Of a DNA stretch of 64,000 nt, positions 1 to 11,364 are shown in pieces. The DNA comes from Anaerocolumna sedimenticola (GTDB taxonomy: Bacteria; Bacillota; Clostridia; Lachnospirales; Lachnospiraceae): NCBI RefSeq assembly GCF_009931695.1, contig NZ_CP048000.1, positions 3,427,501 through 3,491,500 of the forward strand. The letters are read 5' to 3'. Position 1 is the first letter of the stretch, and each line of letters begins with the position of its first letter. The notes beneath the pieces are model-generated. The model ran no database searches. It had not been told where the DNA came from and was given only the letters and a program-made list of their open reading frames with translations. A program made the position numbers and the translations under genes.

Positions 1-587
1 AGAGTGATTTTATAGCATGTATTGGAGCAGTATTAAACCCAGTAAATATTAAGCCGGGGCATCTGTTAGATAAAGCGGCAAAAAGAAATTCCACCCTGGT
101 TTTTGCAGTTGTATGTACTTTGGCTGTTGTAATTTCTTCCATGGCGGCGGTTGGGTCCGACATTGTACTTAAAAGCGTAAAGGATAAATACAACCGTATC
201 ACGTCTCAGATAGAAGAAGCAAAAGATATTGAAGAAATCTATACAGAAAATAAGAACATCCAATATGCCTGGATTACGATGGAATCCATTGAAGAATATA
301 GTTATAGCAATAATGAGAATTTGGGAAAATTATTACTGGAATTACAGCAAAAACTCCCTGATAAAGTAATTGTTCGCTCGTTCCGCGCTACTAATTTGGA
401 TATCTTAATGGATCTTACTGTTGATTCGAAAGAAACCGCGGCTATGACTCTTAGTCAATTAAAAAAGGTAAGTTTATTAGCCAATGTAAAAACAGACGCA
501 GTTTCAGAACAGATGGATGAGTATGGTATTACGGAAGTTAACTTTTCCATTACTGCAAATTATGTGCCAATATCCAAAGAAGAATAG
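1..587 (+). CDS. Type IV pilus assembly protein, PilN-like (possible PilM-PilN fusion), 5' end outside window
   Basis: The open frame runs from the window edge (first full codon at 3) to the stop at 585-587. Visible order: a short stretch ending in ACIGAVLNPVNIKPG, a charged KAAKRN patch, one membrane segment (about FAVVCTLAVVISSMAAV), a coiled-coil-like part, then a C-terminal domain with the alternating pattern of PilN. PilN is the bitopic inner-membrane protein that pairs with PilO and links to cytoplasmic PilM. The ACIGA segment resembles the end of the PilM actin-like fold, and PVNIKPG the start of PilN (INLLP), so a PilM-PilN fusion is plausible but cannot be confirmed here. PilO follows 55 bp downstream. 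An internal ATG exists, but the frame upstream is clearly coding. Confidence 0.75.
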   Translation, partial: SDFIACIGAVLNPVNIKPGHLLDKAAKRNSTLVFAVVCTLAVVISSMAAVGSDIVLKSVKDKYNRITSQIEEAKDIEEIYTENKNIQYAWITMESIEEYSYSNNENLGKLLLELQQKLPDKVIVRSFRATNLDILMDLTVDSKETAAMTLSQLKKVSLLANVKTDAVSEQMDEYGITEVNFSITANYVPISKEE

Positions 588-642
588 TGTGCCATTTGCG
601 GCTGTCAAAGAAGCCTGTTGCAAATCAGGAAAGGATACACAT

Positions 643-1518
643 ATGAAAAATAAAATACAGTTAAAAGGATTAATAAAACCTGCCCTTGTGTTTTCTGCCT
701 TATTGATTATTCTCTTAAACTACCAATTGATTTATAAAAAAAATATTCAGGAAATAAAGAAAGTTAATGCAGACATAACAACACTCTCCGAAACCTTGTC
801 GGATTTACAGGCTAAACAGGTAAACAGGGATGCAATAACGAAAGAAAACGAATCCTTAACCCAGCAAATCAGCGATAAAATCATGTCATACGGAAGCGGT
901 ACAACGGAAGAAAAAAGTATATTATTCATAAACGAATTAGAAAAAAATACAGGTATAAAAATTGACACGGTCATATTCTCCGAACCGGTATATTTCCTTA
1001 ACGGAAACGAAAACAATCAGATTAATAATAACCAGGAAACAGGGGAGACAGACGAAACGGCAGATGCAGGAAGTACGGCGGGAGCGGATGATACAACCAG
1101 TACTGGTGATATAGATAATGATATGCCAAATACGGCAAATCAGCTATCGGAAATTGAAAAAATAGAGTCTGATGAAGAAGATATAACGAACACAGAACTG
1201 ATAGATGGTTTTGGAGCTACAAAAACCATTGATATGCAGCAAATAAAAGGATACGAGTCGACCTTAACCATTACTTTTAAAGTCAGTTATGAAGGATTAA
1301 AGAAATGTATTGATTATATTAACAATTATCCGGAAAAAAGAAATATTGATGAAATTACCCTTTCCTATGATTCTGAAACGGGTAATTTAAACGGTTCAAT
1401 GAAAATCAATATGTATAATTTGATTGGCACCGGTAAGGAATATTCCGAACCGACTATGGGAAATGTGGGTATCGGTCTTGAAAATATATTTGGAACGATT
1501 GATTTTAATCCTAATTAG
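643..1518 (+). CDS. Type IV pilus assembly protein PilO-like
   Basis: A 291-residue protein. The ATG at 643 is chosen because AGGAAAGG lies just upstream; longer in-frame starts run into the preceding pilN-like gene. One membrane segment near residues 10-30, then a Lys/Glu-rich coiled coil (about 35-85), an acidic Asn/Thr/Asp-rich linker and a C-terminal domain. The last 70 residues (GYESTLTITFKVSYEGLKKC and on) match the PilO ferredoxin-like fold, ending in a typical MKINMYNL strand. PilN and PilO heterodimerise in the inner membrane to align the pilus machine. The low-complexity linker is longer than usual for PilO. It lies in the pilus operon, 12 bp before the first prepilin gene. Confidence 0.8.
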   Translation: MKNKIQLKGLIKPALVFSALLIILLNYQLIYKKNIQEIKKVNADITTLSETLSDLQAKQVNRDAITKENESLTQQISDKIMSYGSGTTEEKSILFINELEKNTGIKIDTVIFSEPVYFLNGNENNQINNNQETGETDETADAGSTAGADDTTSTGDIDNDMPNTANQLSEIEKIESDEEDITNTELIDGFGATKTIDMQQIKGYESTLTITFKVSYEGLKKCIDYINNYPEKRNIDEITLSYDSETGNLNGSMKINMYNLIGTGKEYSEPTMGNVGIGLENIFGTIDFNPN

Positions 1519-1530
1519 TGGGAGTTTGTT

Positions 1531-2871
1531 ATGAAACAAAGGAATCAAAACAATGCCGGCTTTACTTTAATTGAAGCTCTTTTATGTATTGCCGTTCTCG
1601 GTTTATTAATTACCCCTCTGCTTGGCAGCTTTGTGACTACAGCCAAAGTAAATATTGTAGGGAAGAAGAATCAAAAAGCTACGGTACTTGCCGGAAATAT
1701 CATGGAATCGATCCAAGCCATGACATTGGAAGAAACGGCATTACAGTTTAATAATGCACAACTCTTTCAAATTATCAATAGTAATTTAAACGGATATAGT
1801 GATAGTAATTATCAGTTAAAAGACTATTCTGAGGATGGTTATGGTGAATATTATTCCTATGGTGATGGAATCTACCGAAAAATTACCGAATCAACGAATC
1901 CAAGATCAAGCGTAGCAACTGTCCCTGGAGATGGGACGAGTCAAAACTATGTATTTAATCCCCCGGGAAACCGTACGAGTTTTGTTTTTGGTGTACAGAA
2001 TTTGCTGGATGGAGAAACTGCATATGATACTCTTATCACTTTGGATACCTCAACTTACAGTGACAGGATAAAATATGAAGACACCATGAATAATTACAAA
2101 ATGCCAAGTTTGGCTGAGTTAAATGAGAATACCCTGGCAATTCTGGATTTGGAAGGGATTAATACCACATGGTCGGATGATTCTGAAAATGCGGAGCCCA
2201 CCTGGCATATTTCAACGGATGAACAGGCAATTTCGGACTTTTATAATATTTATTTATCACATCAGGCTTTAGAAGATACACAATCAGAAGATACCGATGA
2301 TACGCATAACATTGGTATTGATGAAATCAAAGATAAGATATCTAAAGATATAGAAATTTATTTAACTAAGGATGATACATTAAAACAGGTAACGGTGGAA
2401 TGCCGTATTACTTACCGTTGTGATCTGGACTTAAATGAAGACGGGAGAACGGAAAAATTACCGCAGTTAAATCTTATGTCCGGAGTTTACCCTTATATCA
2501 CAGGCAGTGAAAATCAATGTCAGGTTTACCTGTTTTATACTCCCTCCCAATTTACAGACAGAGACTCTATACTGATTCATAATGACAGCGTAGATGCCGC
2601 TATCTATATAGCCAATCAGAACGAAGAAGCAAATACCCGGGTAAAGATTCGAAAGGAAGAGATCAATCACCCAATTACGAAACTATATACCAATCTAAAA
2701 AATTATCAGATTGATGTGAATTTCCCAATTAATGATTATAATCTGGTTACAAAAAAAGTTGATTCCAATCGTGTTTATACCATAACGGTTTCTATTTACC
2801 CAGCCGGAGCTATACAATCCGGTCAATTGGCCAAAACTTATGCAGTCCTTACTTCTGCCAAGGAGGAATAA
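1531..2871 (+). CDS. Prepilin-like protein (PilV-type minor pilin), large
   Basis: 446 residues with a class III prepilin signal: a short basic leader, then G-FTLIEALLCIAVLGLL, with cleavage expected after the Gly and a conserved Glu at +5. The hydrophobic helix is followed by a large exported domain rich in Asp, Asn, Tyr and Ser. Minor pilins usually have 120-220 residues, so this one is oversized. Such proteins prime pilus assembly or sit at the tip. The gene is 12 bp after pilO-like and 3 bp before the next prepilin-like gene, so co-transcription is very likely. The exact minor-pilin class is inferred from order and the N-terminus only. Confidence 0.75.
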   Translation: MKQRNQNNAGFTLIEALLCIAVLGLLITPLLGSFVTTAKVNIVGKKNQKATVLAGNIMESIQAMTLEETALQFNNAQLFQIINSNLNGYSDSNYQLKDYSEDGYGEYYSYGDGIYRKITESTNPRSSVATVPGDGTSQNYVFNPPGNRTSFVFGVQNLLDGETAYDTLITLDTSTYSDRIKYEDTMNNYKMPSLAELNENTLAILDLEGINTTWSDDSENAEPTWHISTDEQAISDFYNIYLSHQALEDTQSEDTDDTHNIGIDEIKDKISKDIEIYLTKDDTLKQVTVECRITYRCDLDLNEDGRTEKLPQLNLMSGVYPYITGSENQCQVYLFYTPSQFTDRDSILIHNDSVDAAIYIANQNEEANTRVKIRKEEINHPITKLYTNLKNYQIDVNFPINDYNLVTKKVDSNRVYTITVSIYPAGAIQSGQLAKTYAVLTSAKEE

Positions 2872-2874
2872 GAT

Positions 2875-4998
2875 ATGAAAATAATCTCTCACCGGAATCT
2901 GGATAACCGAGGTGTTTCTTTTCTTCTTGTTGTAATAGCATTAGGTTTTATTGCAGTACTTGGTACGATTGTAACTACGGCGGCGGTAAGAAATATTACG
3001 ATGAAAACAGTGGATAAGAAATCCAAAGAGGACTTTTATTCTGCGGAAGCAGCATTAGAAGAGATGAAAGCCGGAATTACGGAAATAACAGCAAATGTAA
3101 TGGCAGATTCTTATGAAACCGTACTAAAAGAATACTCTTCCAATAATACGGCGAAACGTAATAAGATTTTTAAGAATACCTTTTTAAATGGTATTAAAAT
3201 AAAGTTACAGGTATCTGTATCCGATCATGTTATTCCGGCTACGGTTATTGCAGGCTTATTAAAAGAAACAAAAAAAGCTGAAAACTCTGTTAATGGAGCA
3301 GAAGTTAAAAGCTCTCCGATTTTTATAGATAACATTAAGAACGATAATTCTGTAACGATACAGAATATAAAAGTAATATATTCTCTGGATGGATATACAT
3401 CAACGATTACTACCGATTTAAAAATAACCGTTCCCGATATATCATTCCGTAAATCCGCTTCGGGATCCGCACACATGCCATACAAAAACTTCGCCTTAAT
3501 TGGAAACCAGGCCATAATAGCAGGTTTTAGTTCCCACAAGATCAATGGCAGTGTATACGCCGGAATAGATGGCCTGCAGGTGAGTAATGAGGGAAATTCC
3601 ATGGAAATAAACGGGTCAGAGATCATTTGTGCAGGTAATATATCAGCCATGGATAAATCTAAACTTCTTATTAAGGGAACCGGTACGGAGGTTTGGGCAA
3701 CGAATCTTTTAACCTCAGAGTCAGATAAAAAAGAAAATACGAACCTGGAAACATCCATTCAGATAGATGGGCACTCTTATATTAAAGATGATCTTATCTT
3801 GGATGCAAAAAAAAGCAATGTTAAATTAACCGGTGAATATTACGGCTATGGTAATGGCACAGACGCCCCAAATAACAGCGCAATCATGATAAATTCCATA
3901 AATTCCACGCTGCAGCTGGAGGGGTTAAGTAAACTATACCTGGCAGGCAGAGCATTTATTTCCATGGATAATACAAATGTTACCTTTGATCCGGATCAGG
4001 AACATGGAGTTTCTTGGGGGGCTAACAGTAATATATTAACTGGTGAATCTTTATCCGTTAAGGGAAGTCAGGGTGCTTATCTTTTACCTGAGAAATTCAT
4101 TTCCGCAGGTCATAATCCTATTACCTGGGATGAATACATTAATTATTATAATAATCCGGACAAGGAATTAATCAAACTGTCTGAGGATGCCATAGTTTTT
4201 TCGAACCCATCCATTTCAGAGGAAGAAAGTAAATTATATTATTATGTTGATGGGGTTAATCCGGTTAAAAAAGAATTTTATAAGTTTGGTTTAGATTCCA
4301 ATGCGGTTTATTTCTATCTGAATTTTAAATCAAAAGAAACAGCCACAACCTACTTAAAAAATTATGAAATGTGCTACCCGGGAAAAATTTATAATGGTTT
4401 TCCAATATCGGCAATTACGGTGAACAATTCCCCTGATGCTGTTGTTAGTGCCGGTAATCTATTAACCTATGAGGATGGTTTGAAAGTTACCCCGGGGAAT
4501 AACGGGTTGTTTACTAATAACTACGAAATCCAATATAATAATCTCTCTAAAACTCTGGAAAAGAATATTTCCGGGGAAGGCACTGTTTTTGATCATCTAA
4601 TACATGGAGACAGAATCAAGGAAGATGGTGAATCAAGGGGAGGACAAGCCTTACTTACCAATTCCGGTTATTATGTAAATATTATAGATAATAAGTCATA
4701 CGGAGTTCCCTTATTTTTTAATGAATATAATAAAGAGGGAATCATTATCGCTACAGGAGATATTGAAGTATGTTCGGATTTTAAGGGATTAATTATTTCC
4801 GGAGGCAAAATAACCTTATATAACGGAGCCGGTATCAATGCGGATCCAGACCTTATATCCTCCATCTTAAGTGAAAATGTAAATGTACGCCGGTATTTTA
4901 AAGAATTTGACTCTTATAAGGAAGGAGAAGCAGATGCTTCTTTTCAGGAATTAAATATTACTGATTTAATACAATATGAGAATTGGAAGAAGAAATGA
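2875..4998 (+). CDS. PilX-like minor pilin with very large C-terminal domain
   Basis: 707 residues. Strong AGGAGG ribosome binding site overlapping the previous stop. The N-terminus has a charged leader, then GVSFLLVVIALGFIAVLGTI and a downstream FYSAEAALEE segment, the hallmark of the PilX N-terminal family. The classic FTLIE core is absent, as is normal for PilX-type proteins. The rest (about residues 200-690) is full of short beta-strand-like repeats such as INGSVYAGIDG and LQLEGLSKLYLAGRAFISM, suggesting a beta-helical or beta-solenoid exported domain. The stop codon overlaps the ATG of the next gene (ATGA), indicating translational coupling. It is far longer than typical PilX (about 170-200 residues). 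Confidence 0.7.
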   Translation: MKIISHRNLDNRGVSFLLVVIALGFIAVLGTIVTTAAVRNITMKTVDKKSKEDFYSAEAALEEMKAGITEITANVMADSYETVLKEYSSNNTAKRNKIFKNTFLNGIKIKLQVSVSDHVIPATVIAGLLKETKKAENSVNGAEVKSSPIFIDNIKNDNSVTIQNIKVIYSLDGYTSTITTDLKITVPDISFRKSASGSAHMPYKNFALIGNQAIIAGFSSHKINGSVYAGIDGLQVSNEGNSMEINGSEIICAGNISAMDKSKLLIKGTGTEVWATNLLTSESDKKENTNLETSIQIDGHSYIKDDLILDAKKSNVKLTGEYYGYGNGTDAPNNSAIMINSINSTLQLEGLSKLYLAGRAFISMDNTNVTFDPDQEHGVSWGANSNILTGESLSVKGSQGAYLLPEKFISAGHNPITWDEYINYYNNPDKELIKLSEDAIVFSNPSISEEESKLYYYVDGVNPVKKEFYKFGLDSNAVYFYLNFKSKETATTYLKNYEMCYPGKIYNGFPISAITVNNSPDAVVSAGNLLTYEDGLKVTPGNNGLFTNNYEIQYNNLSKTLEKNISGEGTVFDHLIHGDRIKEDGESRGGQALLTNSGYYVNIIDNKSYGVPLFFNEYNKEGIIIATGDIEVCSDFKGLIISGGKITLYNGAGINADPDLISSILSENVNVRRYFKEFDSYKEGEADASFQELNITDLIQYENWKKK

Positions 4999-5540
4999 TA
5001 AATCTGAGGCAATCAATGAAAAATGATAAAGGATTTAGTCTGGTAGAACTACTGGTTGTAATTGCGATTGGGGCTATATTGATCGGGGGCGCAGCTATTG
5101 CAACAAACTTTTTTAAGTATGAAGATGTAACAAAATGTACAAGGAAAATTAATGATGCCATACGTAATCTGAAGGTTGAATCCTTAAGCAGAAGTGCAGA
5201 GTATTGTTATCTCATCATTTACTGGGATGCAACAGATGAATCGTATTATATGGTAACTGCTATAAGTGATGAAGAATTAAATGAAACTAATTGGGAAGAG
5301 AAAGCCCAGAAATTAAGTTATCGCCAAAAATTAGCAGCAAATAAGGTTAACATTTCTTATACAAGCCAGTCCGATGGCACCGGAATGACAGATTTAAGGG
5401 AGAATACTCCATTAATGATCAGTTTTAAAGCTGAATCCGGAGCATTTACAAGCGAATGGAAACAAATTACCATAACATCGAATGAGATAACTTCATCCAT
5501 TCATATGGTTACAAAAACAGGCAACCATTATATAGAGTAA
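4995..5540 (+). CDS. Prepilin-like protein, GspH/PilE-type
   Basis: 181 residues from the ATG at 4995, which overlaps the previous stop in an ATGA junction; a TTG at 4983 is in frame but has no advantage. Leader MINLRQSMKNDKG, then FSLVELLVVIAIGAILIG, a typical class III prepilin site with Glu at +5. The remainder is a small globular domain with beta-strand patterns like the GspH/FimT pseudopilin family. A probable minor pilin processed by a prepilin peptidase encoded elsewhere. Confidence 0.78.
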   Translation: MINLRQSMKNDKGFSLVELLVVIAIGAILIGGAAIATNFFKYEDVTKCTRKINDAIRNLKVESLSRSAEYCYLIIYWDATDESYYMVTAISDEELNETNWEEKAQKLSYRQKLAANKVNISYTSQSDGTGMTDLRENTPLMISFKAESGAFTSEWKQITITSNEITSSIHMVTKTGNHYIE

Positions 5541-5608
5541 TCCTAGTTTTAACAAATGTAAACTGAATATTGAGTGAAATACAAAATATCAGGTGAAGAA
5601 GGATAGTT

Positions 5609-6205
5609 ATGAAAAAAGTGATAGTTGCAAAAGAAATTTTTATGAAATCAGAAAAGGAATGCTTTGATAGGGAAAATAACATAGATAATAACGGTTTTAC
5701 ACTTGTAGAATTAATTGCAGCCATGGCAATTTTCGTAATTATATTATCCATAACGGTATCTTTTTTATCCTTCGGTGCAAAAAGTTATACCAAAACCAGG
5801 GATGAAGCAGATTTACAGATGGATTCACAAATTATCATGAATCAGATCGAAGATTTAGCAGTGGAAGCTTATTGGATAGATTTTGCGGAGGTTTCTACTA
5901 ATGTAAAAGCTTTATTACTATATAAATCAGACTATGTTGATATGATATTTTGGGACAGGAATTTAGAAAAATTATACCTGGTAGATGAGCAGGAAATAAC
6001 GGATACCGATTCATTGACTTCTATTTCTTATACGGATGAAAAAAATCTAATGGCAGAGAGAGTAACAAAATTTAATGTACCAACAAGCTCTGAGGCCCTA
6101 AAAAAGGAGAGTAAAATCCAGATTGAAATCAGTTTTGCATCAGGTAAGCAGGTATATCCTGCAGTTCTTAACATCCATTTACGTAATAAAGTTAAGGAAC
6201 CGTAG
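5609..6205 (+). CDS. Prepilin-like protein (PilW/GspJ-like minor pilin)
   Basis: 198 residues. The prepilin motif NGFTLVELIAAMAIFVIIL begins near residue 30, so the leader is long if the ATG at 5609 is used (AAGAAGG upstream). An ATG at 5642 would give a shorter leader. After the hydrophobic helix come LSFGAKSYTKTRDEADLQMD and a short exported domain, as in GspJ/PilW-like pseudopilins. Fourth prepilin-like gene in a row. There is a 68-bp gap from the previous gene and no obvious terminator. Confidence 0.75.
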   Translation: MKKVIVAKEIFMKSEKECFDRENNIDNNGFTLVELIAAMAIFVIILSITVSFLSFGAKSYTKTRDEADLQMDSQIIMNQIEDLAVEAYWIDFAEVSTNVKALLLYKSDYVDMIFWDRNLEKLYLVDEQEITDTDSLTSISYTDEKNLMAERVTKFNVPTSSEALKKESKIQIEISFASGKQVYPAVLNIHLRNKVKEP

Positions 6206-6241
6206 GGCATTAATTTAAAATTATAAGAGAGGAGAGCCGGA

Positions 6242-9200
6242 ATGAAAAAATATATACTTGGAAGTATCCTGTTATTAATGATAGCATTTATATTAACAAA
6301 AGGTATTTTAATCTATACACATAAAGAAGAAGGTACAAAAGCTTCCGCCGCTATTTACGGTACGGATGGTATCATTCCGGTTCCCAAAGAGGAAGGAATG
6401 CAGGGTACGGAAAATAATCCTTTTGTTATACTTGAGGTGGTTCCTTATGAGGGTTATGCGGAAATCGGTTACTTAATCGGGGGATGTGAACCGGTAAATT
6501 TAGAGGATTTGGCACAGGATGGTGTGTCGGCAGAAATCATTAAATCTACAAATACCCTGAATTACTCCTATGGATATGAATATAAGTTTGATTTGGAAGA
6601 GGGAGACACAGTTGGCGGTGGACCAAAAGATTGGGAATATGTCTATTACCAAACCCGGGCCCAATATGGGTATTATGAGAAAGTTGAAAACGGGAAAGGT
6701 AATTTCATTCAGACGGTTACTTCCCAGACAGTAACGGAAGCCCCGGCAGGAAATGGCGGATATAATAAAACGAATTTATACTCCAAAGATAATTATTACA
6801 CTTTATATGATACGAAAGTAAAATTCGTTCCGGTTACGGAGCAGACACCACCTGATGTTATACGTTATTCAACGGAAGAAATTGACCAGTACAGCAGTAA
6901 AAAGTTCTATAATTATGATAAAAAAGCAGATTTATATACATTCAATGACAGTGGACGGGGAAGTACCAATGTCTATTTTTACCGGGATGATGTGAATGGT
7001 AAATATACCGCGGAAGTAATACCCTCAAGCGGTTATATAAGCTGGGATGATATTATGATTACATATAAAAAATCAGATGTTTATGTACCGGCTGCTGATG
7101 AGTACGGCAAACCCAATGGAAAATACAATATAAATATAACGAAAGCCGATTATACGGATGTGGGCGAGAAAAATGGTAATTTCATATGGGTACCCAATGA
7201 AGATAGTAAAAATATAGAGACAAATCATAATGCCATAAAAATCGGAGACAAAGTTCATACATACCGTAACCGAACTTATTACCGGAGAATGAAATATACC
7301 TTAACAAATAAAAACTATTTCCTCACGGAGTGTTTAGATATTCCGGAAAATAAAATAAATAATTATTATACCGACGATGAGGGAAAAACACACCCATATA
7401 ATATTCAGGTAATTACGGTTACCCCCCAGGAACTTAACCGTGTTGAAAACCAACCTGTTATTGACCGGGCAGATTTGATTTATTTTACCTCCAGGGACCA
7501 TTTTAACGGGGATTTAGCAGAGGTTTGGGAGAAATATCATCCGGAAAAAAAATTAAATAATCCTCCCAAGGAGCTTGCAGACATTGATCTGACCTGGGAG
7601 ACAACGGTTAAGATATTAAAAAAAGCAGCTGTATCAGAGGATACGGCACCACTTATTTTCGATGTTACGGTTTATACGGAGATATCAAATGCTTATAAAA
7701 TGAACGATTCACCGGATAAGTATTACAGTGACGGAAAACCCGTAGATAAAAATATGTTAAAAGCGAATGGATACTGCAGTAATATAGCCAAATTATTTTT
7801 AATGACGGAGCAGATGGAGCCTGGCAAATTCTATAATGAATATATTAAAACCGGAAGGATTATATCGGTCCCTACTAAAAATGCCAGCAATAAAGAAGAG
7901 GATAAATACGGAACAAGGATGACAACAGGTTATTATACGGAACAATCCGTAGAAAAAAGTGCCATTTATTGGTCCAATCAGACCTTTCTTCCTTATGAAT
8001 TATTTAAAGATTATTCAGCATTAGATAATAACAAGGTATGGGAAACCATAGGAATTGATAACTACCGTATCATTGTCGATAGCGGAGCCTCTAATGTAAG
8101 TGTCAGGCATAATGCTTATACTTATGATGGAGATAACAGTATTACACAGCTTTTTATGAATTCCGGCATAAGCGAGAATATTTACCGCAAGGAAGCCTTT
8201 GACTTTTTTGAAGAGTTAAATGGTGTCAGACCAAATTATATCTCTCCTGCAGAAGCAGTTTATTATTTACTGCACCAGCATAAAACCGGTTATGATAAGG
8301 ATACGTTAAGAATACTTGAAATTGAACCCTGTAATGATTTCATATGGGATGGTAATTCTAGTACCTGGGAAACAGGAAGTGAGACCGGTAATGGTTCTCC
8401 TTACGCAAGACAGTATTTCACTAAATTTTTCCCGAACTTTCATGGCAAGGTTCTGATTAAAACGATAACTACCTCCGAATTGATCGGTTCGAAAACAGAT
8501 TTAAATGCAAATTATGATATGATATTTTTCGGTTTACAGGATGGGCTTTTTAACAAAGGAAATACCTCAATTAACGGAAACTGGTTGAATAACGTTCCTT
8601 TATATAATGATATTTTATTAAATGGTAAAGTATATCTTCATAACGGCGATAAAATATTGGGAATGAAGAAGCTTCGCGGGACTTTAGGCGGAGATTATGA
8701 CTATACGGATGTCTATACTTTTTCCGGAAATGATATTACCAAACTTAAGTTAGACGAACTAACGAATTTTATGGAGGGAGGCAAACCTGTTCTATTAGAT
8801 ACCGGATTTTATACGGATGAGTCCAGAAACAGAGTAAATGATATCAAGGTTGATTCCGATTCCTATGTCTATGACCTTGCAAAAAACTCCCGGGATGAAC
8901 TGTTTTATGCAGATGGTATTTCTACTGATAAACTGGAGGCATTATTATCCATACCAGTAACAAAACTGAATCTTGGGTGGAATAACAGTTCAAGTCCAAT
9001 GGAGGGTATTGATTACCCGGTTGTATATAAAGACAAGACAAAACCGGAAAATACAGCTTTAACCGATGATAAAATCTATATCAATGGCCTTGATATGAAT
9101 AACAGGACATTACAATATAGATTAAATATAGAAACAGCATCAGATACTGATTTTACGGTAAAATTGTATACGGATAATAACGGTGACGGTCAATTTACCG

Positions 9201-10906
9201 AAGAATCTGAGCGTGCGGTGAATATGACAATCTTATCTGAAAGCGGAAATTCAACAGCGTCAAATGAGTTAAAAGGTAATACAAATTATACTATAACTTA
9301 TCAACTGGATCCGGATTTTTCAGGTGTATTACCATGGAAGCTTTTGATTCTGTCTAACAATAAAACCGGTATCCGTGACTCTGTCATAAATTACTGTGCT
9401 GTTAAGGCTAATGGGAAGAAAGACCTGAATATCCTGCAGATAAAATCTAATGATGGGAATACAATTGATTTATCCAGTAATGCAAGATTTTTAACTGATA
9501 CAGAAAATTTAACTGATTATAATCTCCATATCACAACCTGGACCGTAGAGGAATTTATACAAAAATGTCCCCGTGGTGAGTATCAGTATATTCTCGAGGA
9601 TAATGAGGATAATAATTCTATGAACAGAGACTTAAGTAAAGCCGTTCCGTATATTGATGATGACGGTGACGGTTTCTATGAAGTAGATATGTTGATCCTG
9701 GGATTTGCCCATATGTATACTGATATTAATTCAAATAGTGCATTGCAGAATATTAAGGATTTTATAAAGACAGGAAAACCGGTTATATTTACACATGATA
9801 CAACTTCTTATGTTAATACAAGCCTGACACGGTATAAACAAAACGGCGGGTCAGAAAGTACGTATTGGGGATATAAGATAAATCAAAATTTCAGGAACCT
9901 GCTTGGAATGGACCGGTACGGAGTTACAGGACCTAATGGTAAGGATTGTGAAATTTTGGGACAGGGTTTCACCAATCTGCTGCTTAGCAGTAATGCCGAA
10001 TCTAATCCAATCGGCGATCTATTAAACCGGTACGGCTTTAATAAGTATGTCAATCCCAATAACCGACTTAATCTGGATACGAAATATGTAACTAATGTCA
10101 ATAACGGCCGTATAACATCCTATCCTTATAAGATTGATCAGAACTTTCAGGTTGGGACCACTCACAGCCAGTATTATCAACTGGATATGGAGAATAAAGA
10201 TTTAATCGTATGGTATTGCCTGTCAGATGAAAAAAGTAAGTTAATTAATTCAGTAACCGGTACGGATACAGGTTTATATAGTTCCGCACCAAATGATGTA
10301 CGGAATAATTATTATTTATACAGTAAAGGCAACCTTACTTATTCCGGTATGGGGAATACGGAGACGGTCAGTGATATGGAAATGAAATTATTTATCAATA
10401 CTATTATCGCCTCCTATACAGCTGCACCGAAAGTACCCCAGATAGTTATCAATAACAGTAATAAATCCACAGATGAAAACGGTAAGGATTATATCTATGT
10501 CGATTATGACATTTATGATACTTCCCGGGGTTACGGTTCCGATGTTATAGATGGGGATATACAAAAGCAAAAAGTGAAATTTGAAATTTTGGATTCCAAC
10601 CTGCTGCCGAATGAAAAATTCACTGTAAAATATTTTGAGATAACCGATCAGGAAGATGGTACCAGAACCGAATCGGAATTAACCGAATTGAAAACGAAAC
10701 AGTCAAGTACGGGTGAAGTTACGGAACAGATAAGAAGCGGGGAAGAGTATTATATTGAATTACCATTAACGGAATTAGCACTGTATCATAAAGGAAAAGA
10801 AATATCCATCAAAGTATTTCTGTCATACGGTAATACTTCAGAAAATACAATGACATCAGTTAAGGAATTTACTTTATTCCGAAGAGGGTTATTTGATTTA
10901 GATTAA
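6242..10906 (+). CDS. Giant exported protein of the pilus operon (DUF5057-like)
   Basis: 1554 residues with ribosome binding site GAGAGGAGAG. The N-terminus has a basic MKKY and one hydrophobic segment (about residues 5-23), followed by a possible signal peptidase site (KASA before AIYG). Next comes NPFVILEVVPYEGYAEIGYL, which I recognise from the DUF5057 family of clostridial proteins. The rest is a Tyr/Asn/Asp-rich extracellular-type sequence. Two Asp-rich loops, DNNGDGQF near residue 977 and DDDGDGFYEVD near 1138, resemble calcium-binding loops. There is no LPXTG-type sorting motif at the C-terminus. It sits directly after four prepilin genes and 11 bp before a GtrA-like gene. A role as a pilus-tip or surface adhesin is inference from context. 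Function of the family is not known to me. Confidence 0.65.
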   Translation: MKKYILGSILLLMIAFILTKGILIYTHKEEGTKASAAIYGTDGIIPVPKEEGMQGTENNPFVILEVVPYEGYAEIGYLIGGCEPVNLEDLAQDGVSAEIIKSTNTLNYSYGYEYKFDLEEGDTVGGGPKDWEYVYYQTRAQYGYYEKVENGKGNFIQTVTSQTVTEAPAGNGGYNKTNLYSKDNYYTLYDTKVKFVPVTEQTPPDVIRYSTEEIDQYSSKKFYNYDKKADLYTFNDSGRGSTNVYFYRDDVNGKYTAEVIPSSGYISWDDIMITYKKSDVYVPAADEYGKPNGKYNINITKADYTDVGEKNGNFIWVPNEDSKNIETNHNAIKIGDKVHTYRNRTYYRRMKYTLTNKNYFLTECLDIPENKINNYYTDDEGKTHPYNIQVITVTPQELNRVENQPVIDRADLIYFTSRDHFNGDLAEVWEKYHPEKKLNNPPKELADIDLTWETTVKILKKAAVSEDTAPLIFDVTVYTEISNAYKMNDSPDKYYSDGKPVDKNMLKANGYCSNIAKLFLMTEQMEPGKFYNEYIKTGRIISVPTKNASNKEEDKYGTRMTTGYYTEQSVEKSAIYWSNQTFLPYELFKDYSALDNNKVWETIGIDNYRIIVDSGASNVSVRHNAYTYDGDNSITQLFMNSGISENIYRKEAFDFFEELNGVRPNYISPAEAVYYLLHQHKTGYDKDTLRILEIEPCNDFIWDGNSSTWETGSETGNGSPYARQYFTKFFPNFHGKVLIKTITTSELIGSKTDLNANYDMIFFGLQDGLFNKGNTSINGNWLNNVPLYNDILLNGKVYLHNGDKILGMKKLRGTLGGDYDYTDVYTFSGNDITKLKLDELTNFMEGGKPVLLDTGFYTDESRNRVNDIKVDSDSYVYDLAKNSRDELFYADGISTDKLEALLSIPVTKLNLGWNNSSSPMEGIDYPVVYKDKTKPENTALTDDKIYINGLDMNNRTLQYRLNIETASDTDFTVKLYTDNNGDGQFTEESERAVNMTILSESGNSTASNELKGNTNYTITYQLDPDFSGVLPWKLLILSNNKTGIRDSVINYCAVKANGKKDLNILQIKSNDGNTIDLSSNARFLTDTENLTDYNLHITTWTVEEFIQKCPRGEYQYILEDNEDNNSMNRDLSKAVPYIDDDGDGFYEVDMLILGFAHMYTDINSNSALQNIKDFIKTGKPVIFTHDTTSYVNTSLTRYKQNGGSESTYWGYKINQNFRNLLGMDRYGVTGPNGKDCEILGQGFTNLLLSSNAESNPIGDLLNRYGFNKYVNPNNRLNLDTKYVTNVNNGRITSYPYKIDQNFQVGTTHSQYYQLDMENKDLIVWYCLSDEKSKLINSVTGTDTGLYSSAPNDVRNNYYLYSKGNLTYSGMGNTETVSDMEMKLFINTIIASYTAAPKVPQIVINNSNKSTDENGKDYIYVDYDIYDTSRGYGSDVIDGDIQKQKVKFEILDSNLLPNEKFTVKYFEITDQEDGTRTESELTELKTKQSSTGEVTEQIRSGEEYYIELPLTELALYHKGKEISIKVFLSYGNTSENTMTSVKEFTLFRRGLFDLD

Positions 10907-10917
10907 AGGAGAAATCA

Positions 10918-11364
10918 ATGTTTCAAAGATTACCGGGAATATATAAATCCATATGGAAAAGGGCTGTAAACAGGGAGACAATTACCTATGGAATCGCGGG
11001 TGCTCTGACAACGCTGGTTAATTATGCGGCTTATTATATATTCTGTAATAGAATCGGAATAGAGAATCTGATTGCCAACATAATAGCCTGGATAATAGCA
11101 GTAATTTTTGCGTATATTATTAATGATATATGGGTATTTAAAGCACAGATGTCAGGTATTCAATCTGAATTTATTAAGGTTATCAAATTTTTCGGAGCAA
11201 GATTATTTTCCCTTATTGTGGAAGAAGCCGGTTTATTTCTATTTGTAGATATATTATCCTGGAATAACCTGGTTGTTAAGGCTGCACTGGCAGTTATTGT
11301 AATAATTTTAAATTATTTTTTCAGTAAGCTTTATATTTTTAATAAAAGAAGTATTGAAATATAA
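10918..11364 (+). CDS. GtrA-like membrane protein
   Basis: 148 residues, AAAGGAG ribosome binding site. Four predicted membrane segments, with the family signature near the N-terminus (TYGIAGALTTLVNYAAYYIF) and the IAWIIAVIFAYIINDIWVF pattern. GtrA-family proteins are small integral membrane proteins linked to cell-surface polysaccharide synthesis, often as flippases of lipid-linked sugars. The gene is 11 bp after the giant pilus-operon protein and probably ends the operon. A weak inverted repeat follows the stop (ATGATTC...GAATCAT, 11364-11396) without a T run. Whether it serves pilus glycosylation is unknown. Confidence 0.8.
   Translation: MFQRLPGIYKSIWKRAVNRETITYGIAGALTTLVNYAAYYIFCNRIGIENLIANIIAWIIAVIFAYIINDIWVFKAQMSGIQSEFIKVIKFFGARLFSLIVEEAGLFLFVDILSWNNLVVKAALAVIVIILNYFFSKLYIFNKRSIEI

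What the first reader, a model, noticed from the sequence alone, without database searches (positions are those of the whole stretch)
1..11364. Pilus operon with four prepilins and a 1554-residue exported protein as possible tip adhesin
The giant protein is encoded immediately after the minor pilins, has an export signal, no sortase motif, and two Asp-rich loops resembling calcium sites (as found in PilY1, the tip protein of proteobacterial pili). No PilY1 homologue is known to me for this cluster type, so it could be an analogue. Two of the minor pilins are also oversized (446 and 707 residues).
Basis: partly seen in the sequence, partly recalled or inferred. Interest (0 to 1): 0.55.

Follow-up and report, generated by a model that had tools for sequence, protein, structure and literature searches.

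The report
Giant tip protein of clostridial pili
A very large exported protein found in many gut and soil clostridia is nearly always encoded beside the genes for the tip pieces of their type IV pili, and it ends in a strongly conserved short tail that probably plugs it onto the pilus tip, much as an unrelated protein does in other bacteria.

Summary
The window cuts into a type IVa pilus locus (PilB, PilT, PilC, PilA, PilD, PilM-PilN fusion, PilO, four minor prepilins) that ends with a 1554-residue exported-looking protein and a GtrA-like gene. The giant is a Pfam DUF5057 protein, single-copy here and present in 80 of 397 sampled genomes of its family. Of 87 neighbourhoods not cut by a contig edge, 84 carry pilus genes (77 with a minor pilin directly upstream); two of the three exceptions are distant, partial matches. 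It is not a PilY1 homologue by sequence: no PilY1 profile match, and the predicted fold is amidotransferase/ThuA-like domains alternating with Ig-like domains. It looks built like PilY1, though: length-variable N-terminal half, nearly fixed C-terminal half, and a stop-anchored C-terminal peptide, typically L-F-x-L-D, conserved far above the residues before it. In published Myxococcus models the last residues of PilY1 form a strand added to minor pilin PilX. I infer a non-pilin tip effector, probably an adhesin, docked by its tail on the Glu5-less 707-residue pilin. Export, tip location, docking and adhesion are not shown. One of the two proposed calcium loops is family-wide, the other is not. 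A tip enzyme remains a rival.

The parts
3..587 (+). 3' part of a PilM-PilN fusion (546 aa, begins upstream of the window)
   Evidence: PF11104 PilM_2 E 2.4e-17 on the whole protein; PilN weak, E 0.0017, below cut-off
643..1518 (+). PilO-like protein, assigned by position and topology (longest frame starts at 517)
   Evidence: no significant Pfam match
1531..2871 (+). minor prepilin V, 446 aa, with Glu5 (GFTLIEALL)
   Evidence: PF07963 E 6e-6
2875..4998 (+). minor prepilin X, 707 aa, no Glu5 (GVSFLLVVIALG): GspK/PilX-like, the proposed cap and docking platform
   Evidence: no Pfam match itself, PilX_N sub-threshold in 2 of 8 relatives scanned; [NDSE]W near the C-terminus in 70 of 76 X proteins
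4995..5540 (+). minor prepilin H, 181 aa (185 from a TTG at 4983)
   Evidence: PF07963 E 4.2e-10
5609..6205 (+). minor prepilin J, 198 aa
   Evidence: PF07963 E 1e-6; ComGF-like N-terminus E 4.7e-7 but below cut-off
6242..10906 (+). giant exported-looking protein, 1554 aa, DUF5057 family
   Evidence: PF16480 E 1.5e-50, residues 830-1186
6242..6352 (+). export signal region (residues 1-37): hydrophobic helix, possible signal peptidase site ASA at 35-37
   Evidence: sequence; helix 2-25 in the model; cleavage not tested
6413..7876 (+). domain D1 (residues about 58-545), Rossmann-like, with a variable insert (about residues 90-330)
   Evidence: model mean pLDDT 74.9, insert below 50 in places; best VIA match a ThuA-like protein, Z 5.8 only; D1 versus D2 profile probability 90%
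8309..8968 (+). domain D2 (residues about 690-909), related to D1
8729..9799 (+). Pfam DUF5057 match (residues 830-1186)
8957..9415 (+). Ig-like beta-sandwich 1 (residues about 906-1058)
9173..9211 (+). conserved EF-hand-like loop D978-x-N-x-D982-G ... E990, probable Ca2+ site
   Evidence: D978 and D982 61 of 61, E990 60 of 61
9416..10435 (+). domain D3 (residues about 1059-1398), ThuA/class I amidotransferase-like fold
   Evidence: 4jqs_A Z 16.8, 223 aligned, rmsd 3.9, model 331-709 = residues 1020-1398
9794..9799 (+). invariant H1185-D1186; with N1287, T1307, H1308, Q1310, N1364, E1380 a possible ligand or active site
   Evidence: 61 of 61 sequences each
10427..10891 (+). Ig-like beta-sandwich 2 (residues about 1396-1550)
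   Evidence: Ig-type chains, mostly PD-1, Z 7.3-8.1, a level the tool calls common
10886..10903 (+). C-terminal tail GLFDLD (residues 1549-1554), proposed docking peptide
   Evidence: last strand runs to residue 1550
10918..11364 (+). GtrA-like membrane protein, 11 bases downstream of the giant
   Evidence: PF04138 E 1.1e-22

Best explanation
The 1554-residue protein is a secreted, non-pilin tip effector of a monoderm type IVa pilus. SHOWN: it is encoded in one dense run with the pilus machinery, and its family is nearly always found beside pilus genes; the C-terminal half varies little in length and has a confident predicted fold; the last five residues are conserved far above the 19 before them, in register with the stop codon. 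INFERRED: it is exported by Sec and released; the last beta-strand and tail (FTLFRRGLFDLD) dock on the minor-pilin tip complex, most likely the Glu5-less 707-residue X pilin, by strand addition as modelled for PilY1 and PilX; pilus assembly then carries it out on the tip; the variable N-terminal half presents a binding surface (adhesin), so that the pilus, which has a PilT, can hold a substrate or cell and pull.
For: Linkage: of 94 neighbourhoods, 77 have a minor pilin ending within 1.5 kb upstream, 7 have pilus genes elsewhere in the fetched stretch, 7 are cut by contig edges, 3 have none. Tail: of 138 non-redundant giants, L at -2 in 131, F at -4 in 112, L at -5 in 104; the tail pattern, written after seeing the tails, ends 106 of 138 giants against 1 of 793 other frames and 0 of 254 pilins of the same loci. 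Of five complete 'mini-giants' in PF16480-negative pilus clusters, four have L at -2 with D or N last (three fit the pattern) although D3 is not detected at E <= 0.01. Two-part design: N-terminal part 321-1293 residues (CV 0.31), C-terminal part 775-1241 (CV 0.09), n = 67 of 80 loci; single members carry PA14, SHIRT or Flg_new N-terminal to DUF5057 and one an adhesive module not located. X pilins are longer where a giant or mini-giant exists (82 against 11 clusters, Mann-Whitney p 1.5e-7, not corrected for relatedness). Fold of residues 690-1554: pLDDT 83.5, pTM 0.86; ThuA-like Z 16.8, Ig-like. Precedent: PilY1 C-terminal strands added to PilX in AlphaFold models (PMC11046646, passages); tip complex capped by a subunit lacking Glu5 (PMC10191384, passages).
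Against: No complex was modelled, so docking is by analogy. The window protein carries no recognised adhesion module. Three uncut loci lack pilus genes: L073 (full giant; the genome's PilM-like match is on another contig) and L262 and L264 (exported-looking 1209- and 1074-aa proteins matching only the end of DUF5057, without the tail), so distant relatives away from pilus genes exist. L081 holds a truncated giant behind PilC. The three giants of the other family end in ..DRY or ..NRY instead of the tail. L138 has an accessory module C-terminal to DUF5057. D3 has an enzyme-like fold and an invariant polar set. If the N-terminal helix is not cleaved, the protein would stay in the membrane. Many pilus clusters lack it: at least 11 of 20 PF16480-negative clusters examined have neither giant nor mini-giant.
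Confidence: 0.66

Rival explanations
1. Tip enzyme: the giant is carried by the pilus but its ThuA/amidotransferase-like domain D3 processes a substrate such as a cell-wall or plant glycan, and binding is secondary.
For: D3 matches a ThuA-like protein at Z 16.8. H1185, D1186, N1287, T1307, H1308, Q1310, N1364 and E1380 are invariant in 61 of 61. The KGN-x-TYSG-x-GH stretch lines up with a GKG-x-x-FY-x-x-x-GH stretch of ThuA in the profile alignment. Relatives away from pilus genes keep part of DUF5057.
Against: Profile comparison with 13 ThuA sequences gives only 5% probability. The final H of that stretch is N in the window protein (59 of 61 have H). The invariant columns listed for D1 and D2 show no comparable set. 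Chains that I take to be OST48/Wbp1, a non-catalytic subunit (recalled), also match (Z 10-12).
Confidence: 0.17
2. Assembly factor or plug: the giant primes pilus assembly or gates passage through the wall and contributes no binding specificity.
For: C-terminal half of nearly fixed length and fixed operon position; a reference title seen describes M. xanthus PilY1 as part of a priming complex.
Against: Variable N-terminal half with accessory modules in single members; at least 11 related clusters do without it.
Confidence: 0.2
3. Membrane- or wall-anchored surface protein that is only co-transcribed with the pilins.
For: N-terminal hydrophobic helix that might not be cleaved; export of the window protein rests on sequence inspection; pilus-unlinked distant relatives exist.
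Against: 119 of 122 relatives with a hydrophobic region also have a small-x-Ala site (home-made rule). Linkage to the same minor pilins over the family and a stop-anchored tail are hard to explain for a bystander. No wall-sorting motif in 167 C-termini.
Confidence: 0.1

Closest known systems
PilY1/PilC tip protein of diderm type IVa pili (PF05567/IPR008707)
   Same: large non-pilin exported protein encoded with minor pilins; variable N-terminal and conserved C-terminal part; calcium (for PilY1 known here only from titles in a reference list); last residues modelled as a beta-strand on PilX (PMC11046646, passages)
   Different: no PF05567 match at E <= 1; ThuA-like and Ig-like domains predicted where PilY1 has its propeller; monoderm host
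Modular minor pilins of Streptococcus sanguinis (PilB, PilC)
   Same: monoderm type IVa pili with adhesive modules proposed at the tip (PMC8179133, passages)
   Different: there the module is fused to a pilin; here it is a separate non-pilin protein. Enlarged J pilins (up to 1396 aa) in giant-less clusters look like that solution
GspK and Thermus ComZ
   Same: large tip pilins; ComZ carries a beta-solenoid in a GspK-like pilin fold (PMC6561018, passages); comparable in being oversized with the X pilin here
   Different: the fold of X was not predicted here; no separate giant is described in the passages read
Clostridioides difficile type IV pilus cluster
   Same: tip complex proposed from PilU, PilV and PilK (PMC9556784, passages); a PilM-PilN fusion there is recalled, not checked
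   Different: no giant protein appears in the passages read; no genome of that species was examined
ThuA-like proteins / OST48-type chains
   Same: fold of D3 (Z 16.8) and of D3 plus Ig2 (Z 10-12, rmsd about 11); the OST48 identity of those chains is recalled
   Different: no significant sequence relation to ThuA (5%); secreted, multi-domain

Membership tests
PilY1/PilC (PF05567, IPR008707) | match to the PilY1 beta-propeller profile | tested here: not met
   window giant: only DUF5057 at E <= 1; none of the 15 families listed for 25 giants at E <= 0.01 is PF05567
PilY1/PilC (PF05567, IPR008707) | beta-propeller fold of the C-terminal half | tested here: inconclusive
   the model of residues 690-1554 is alpha/beta plus Ig-like; absence from a hit list is no proof
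PilY1/PilC (PF05567, IPR008707) | encoded with the minor pilins of a type IVa pilus | tested here: met
   window operon; 84 of 87 uncut neighbourhoods carry pilus genes
PilY1/PilC (PF05567, IPR008707) | extreme C-terminal strand docks on PilX | not testable with these tools
   only single chains could be folded; a conserved stop-anchored tail is present
DUF5057 (PF16480) | profile match over the gathering score | tested here: met
   173.1 bits against 27.9
Type IVa pilus of monoderms | PilB, PilC, PilD, PilM/N, PilO, major and minor pilins, PilT | tested here: met
   Pfam matches for PilB, PilT, PilC, PilA, PilD and PilM; PilN weak (E 0.0017) and PilO by position only
ThuA (PF06283) | sequence profile match | tested here: not met
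   no Pfam match; hhalign probability 5% against 13 ThuA sequences
ThuA / class I amidotransferase-like fold | fold of the domain | tested here: met
   D3: 4jqs_A Z 16.8, rmsd 3.9, 223 aligned; D1 only weakly, Z 5.8
Modular pilin | prepilin leader on the giant itself | tested here: not met
   no N_methyl match on the giant
Sortase-anchored surface protein | C-terminal sorting motif and membrane segment | tested here: not met
   no LPxT[GASN] in the last 80 residues and no C-terminal membrane segment with basic tail in 167 complete relatives; the window giant ends RRGLFDLD

The most novel reading that the evidence does not exclude
DUF5057 giants are the missing non-pilin tip effectors of monoderm type IVa pili: a second, non-homologous invention of the PilY1 principle, with a ThuA/Ig scaffold as carrier, exchangeable N-terminal modules, and a C-terminal L-F-x-L-D plug that fits a socket on the Glu5-less cap pilin. 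Shorter 'mini-giants' with a similar end suggest that the plug-and-socket joint, not the scaffold, is what is conserved, and enlarged J pilins would be the fused alternative.
Probability: 0.5. Interest if true: 0.75.

Novelty: new variant of a known kind. Interest (0 to 1): 0.6.

Why it matters
How monoderm type IV pili stick to things is largely open; the answer in the papers whose passages I read is adhesive modules fused to pilins (PMC6916266; PMC8179133), while a separate non-pilin tip protein is described for diderms (PMC10191384). A widespread giant with a conserved C-terminal plug would give gut and soil Lachnospiraceae, including named Roseburia, Blautia, Lachnoclostridium and Anaerocolumna strains, a defined candidate for substrate or host adhesion, and would make the plug-and-socket idea testable by removing five residues.

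Tried and rejected
PilY1 homology: rejected by profile. A genome search with the PilY1 profile in 299 phylum genomes and 61 relatives found nothing, but nothing rang in the control genomes either, so it says nothing. Beta-propeller or integrin-like fold: not among the matches listed; told here only. No solved relative by sequence. ThuA membership by sequence: 5%. D2 versus D3 (95% but 23 columns), D1 versus D3 (45%, 18 columns) and Ig1 versus Ig2 (16%) as repeats: weak.

PilM profile (PF11104) as a census of pilus clusters: rejected, since 311 of 397 genomes match, many over part of the profile only, and the list of places is capped. I picked PilMN-type frames without a PF16480 match by eye, left out two (G695 at a contig end, G033) and fetched 20. 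Of these, 6 hold a mini-giant, 11 neither, and 3 (L148 without a recognisable X, L156 of another kind, L161 cut) were left out of the length tests. Counted as 'neither' by the family criterion, but with other exported-looking proteins near: L149 (679-aa lipoprotein-like, next to J) and L154 (1699-aa protein with a C-terminal membrane segment). The 76 X lengths include one possibly partial (566 aa).

L104 and L106 overlap (tandem giants), and several genomes give more than one neighbourhood. L130 matched DUF5057 (35.6 bits) but not.

Structured RNA: no Rfam match in 28 kb. Promoter and terminator scans were at or below shuffle level. The tail pattern was written after seeing the tails; the form used fits 57 of 88, that fits 106 of 138 after dropping 26 redundant and 3 other-family sequences from 167. 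Literature, listings only: DUF5057 in 0 papers of the held library; Lachnospiraceae + type IV pili + minor pilin, Roseburia + type IV pili + adhesin, and PilY1 or tip adhesin with Gram-positive or monoderm terms listed no such protein; ThuA-like + glycoside + glutamine amidotransferase 0 papers. That covers open-licence papers only.
Full report
WHAT IS THERE. The window is part of a 5.5 Mb genome held as one contig; among named records the closest giant is that of Anaerocolumna sp. MB42-C2 (85% identity), so the host is probably an Anaerocolumna-like member of the Lachnospiraceae. The pilus locus begins upstream of the window: sigma factor, PilB (with an MshEN domain), PilT, PilC, PilA, PilD and a PilM-PilN fusion. 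It continues in the window with PilO, minor prepilins V (446 aa), X (707 aa, no Glu5), H (181 aa) and J (198 aa), the giant (1554 aa) and a GtrA-like protein, with gaps of -4 to 68 bases. The genome has four N_methyl matches, all in this locus, and one DUF5057 match.

HOW TIGHTLY THE GIANT GOES WITH PILI. DUF5057 occurs in 9 of 61 genomes of the relatives draw, 7 of 398 of the phylum and 80 of 397 of the family, the own genome included in each, and in 0 of 14 control genomes. I fetched 94 neighbourhoods, one for each matching frame of these searches outside the own genome. 77 have a minor pilin ending within 1.5 kb upstream, 7 have pilus genes elsewhere in the stretch, 7 are cut by a contig edge and 3 have none. 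So 84 of 87 uncut neighbourhoods are pilus-linked. The exceptions are L073, a full giant whose genome has its PilM-like match on another contig, and L262 and L264, 1209- and 1074-aa exported-looking proteins that match only the last 40-odd profile positions and lack the tail. In the rows shown the usual order is PilMN, PilO, V, X, H, J, giant (the output was cut). L106/L104 hold two giants in tandem. I also examined 20 PilMN clusters without a PF16480 match, chosen by eye: six carry a shorter exported-looking protein in the same slot (802 to 1151 aa, one of them cut at 1012), 11 have none by my criterion, and 3 could not be used.

THE TAIL. An alignment of the window giant with 10 relatives (24-85% identity to it) showed a shared end. 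Of 167 complete C-termini, 141 were non-redundant, and 138 remained without the three of the other family. Right-aligned to the stop codon, -2 is L in 131, -4 is F in 112, -5 is L in 104 and -1 is D in 84 of 138; relative entropy at -5, -4 and -2 is 2.8, 3.6 and 3.6 bits, against 0.2 to 1.6 for positions -24 to -6. The pattern ends 106 of 138 giants, 1 of 793 other frames and 0 of 254 pilins of the same loci, and occurs at 0.17% of internal positions. It was written after seeing the data. Of five mini-giants with a complete end, four have L at -2 and D or N last (SIKDLD, FFMLD, MFELN, LFDLD; three of them fit the pattern) and one does not (GFSLM). Four of the six match D1 at an independent E of 2.2e-5 or better, and none matches D3 at E <= 0.01.

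STRUCTURE. AlphaFold2 with 61 sequences gave residues 690-1554 at mean pLDDT 83.5, pTM 0.86; residues 1-700 with 50 sequences gave 74.9 and 0.68, with a poorly predicted insert at about 165-285. D3 matches a ThuA-like protein (4jqs_A, Z 16.8, 223 aligned, rmsd 3.9); D3 with Ig2 matches chains that I take to be OST48/Wbp1 (Z 10-12, rmsd about 11). Ig2 matches Ig-type chains at Z 7.3-8.1, a level the tool calls common. D1 has only weak matches, the best ThuA-like (Z 5.8). Profile comparison relates D1 to D2 (90%) and D2 to D3 (95%, but over 23 columns). The protein is best described as Rossmann domains of amidotransferase type alternating with Ig-like domains. The last strand runs to residue 1550, leaving F-D-L-D beyond it.

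TWO-PART DESIGN. Split at residue 690, the N-terminal part varies from 321 to 1293 residues (CV 0.31) and the C-terminal part from 775 to 1241 (CV 0.09), for 67 of the 80 loci that passed the completeness filter; one search kept the best 80 of 197. Among 25 giants scanned, 24 match DUF5057; two match Flg_new and single members match pAdhesive_15, PA14, SHIRT, Big_2 and CarboxypepD_reg, with GLEYA, CBM26 and ricin-type lectin below their cut-offs. Where I located them, SHIRT, Flg_new, PA14, CBM26 and ricin-type stretches lie N-terminal to DUF5057; in L138 a CarboxypepD_reg stretch lies C-terminal. The window protein has none of these.

MECHANISM. [quoted passage not shown] A review describes PilC/PilY1 as the non-pilin tip effector of diderm pili and the tip complex as capped by a subunit lacking Glu5 (PMC10191384, passages). 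The window has such a Glu5-less pilin, X, directly before H and J. X pilins are longer in clusters with a giant or mini-giant (n = 82) than without (n = 11; p 1.5e-7, not corrected for relatedness), and J pilins exceed 300 aa in 9 of 11 clusters without and 23 of 72 with a giant (Fisher p 0.0024, same caveat). I therefore propose that the tail docks on X, that the giant rides out on the pilus tip, and that its N-terminal half binds something; where no giant exists the J pilin may carry the module. Export, docking, tip location and adhesion are inferred.

WHAT SPEAKS AGAINST. D3 carries residues invariant in 61 of 61 sequences (H1185, D1186, N1287, T1307, H1308, Q1310, N1364, E1380) on an enzyme-like fold, so a tip enzyme is possible. 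Members of the other family lack the tail. Distant relatives away from pilus genes exist, one full giant is unlinked and one is truncated. Related sequences inflate counts; I removed close relatives only by shared 5-mers.

CALCIUM LOOPS. D978-x-N-x-D982-G ... E990 is conserved (61, 61 and 60 of 61) and fits an EF-hand-like loop; the DDDGD loop at 1139-1143 is not conserved.

VERDICT. Observation confirmed; interpretation partly supported. It is a new, non-homologous variant of the PilY1 principle with moderate support, awaiting a complex model or a pull-down.

Noticed in passing
L005:3620-5335 (upstream of the window): PilB carries an MshEN domain (PF05157 E 3.4e-15), a domain known to bind c-di-GMP (recalled), so pilus extension may respond to this messenger; no riboswitch was found in the locus.
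   Followed up: partly
L005:2622-3260: A 212-aa sigma-70 family factor lies directly upstream of pilB and may drive the operon.
   Followed up: no
window 10918-11364: A GtrA-like membrane protein follows the giant by 11 bases; it also follows it in at least four relatives (L126, L134, L135, L136), hinting at glycosylation linked to the pilus.
   Followed up: partly
L106 / L104 (one genome, G683): Two full-length DUF5057 giants in tandem behind one minor-pilin set.
   Followed up: no
L148:8223-15650, L155:8570-12760: Prepilins of 2475 and 1396 residues in clusters without a giant: possibly fused tip modules.
   Followed up: partly
L081 (G458): A truncated giant (652 aa, DUF5057 end and tail kept) overlaps the end of pilC, with no minor pilins recognised in the stretch: looks like a deletion.
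   Followed up: no
X pilins of 76 loci: 70 of 76 X pilins carry an [NDSE]W pair within their last 40 residues (typically Y-x-N-W-x-K), a second conserved terminus; by eye several giant-less clusters have it too.
   Followed up: partly
L262, L263, L264: Exported-looking proteins of 1049-1209 aa that match only the end of DUF5057; no pilus genes in the 20 kb around L262 and L264 (L263 is a 4.5-kb contig): perhaps a second, pilus-independent branch; two of them (L263, L264) end alike (I-x-LQM-x-x-C).
   Followed up: partly
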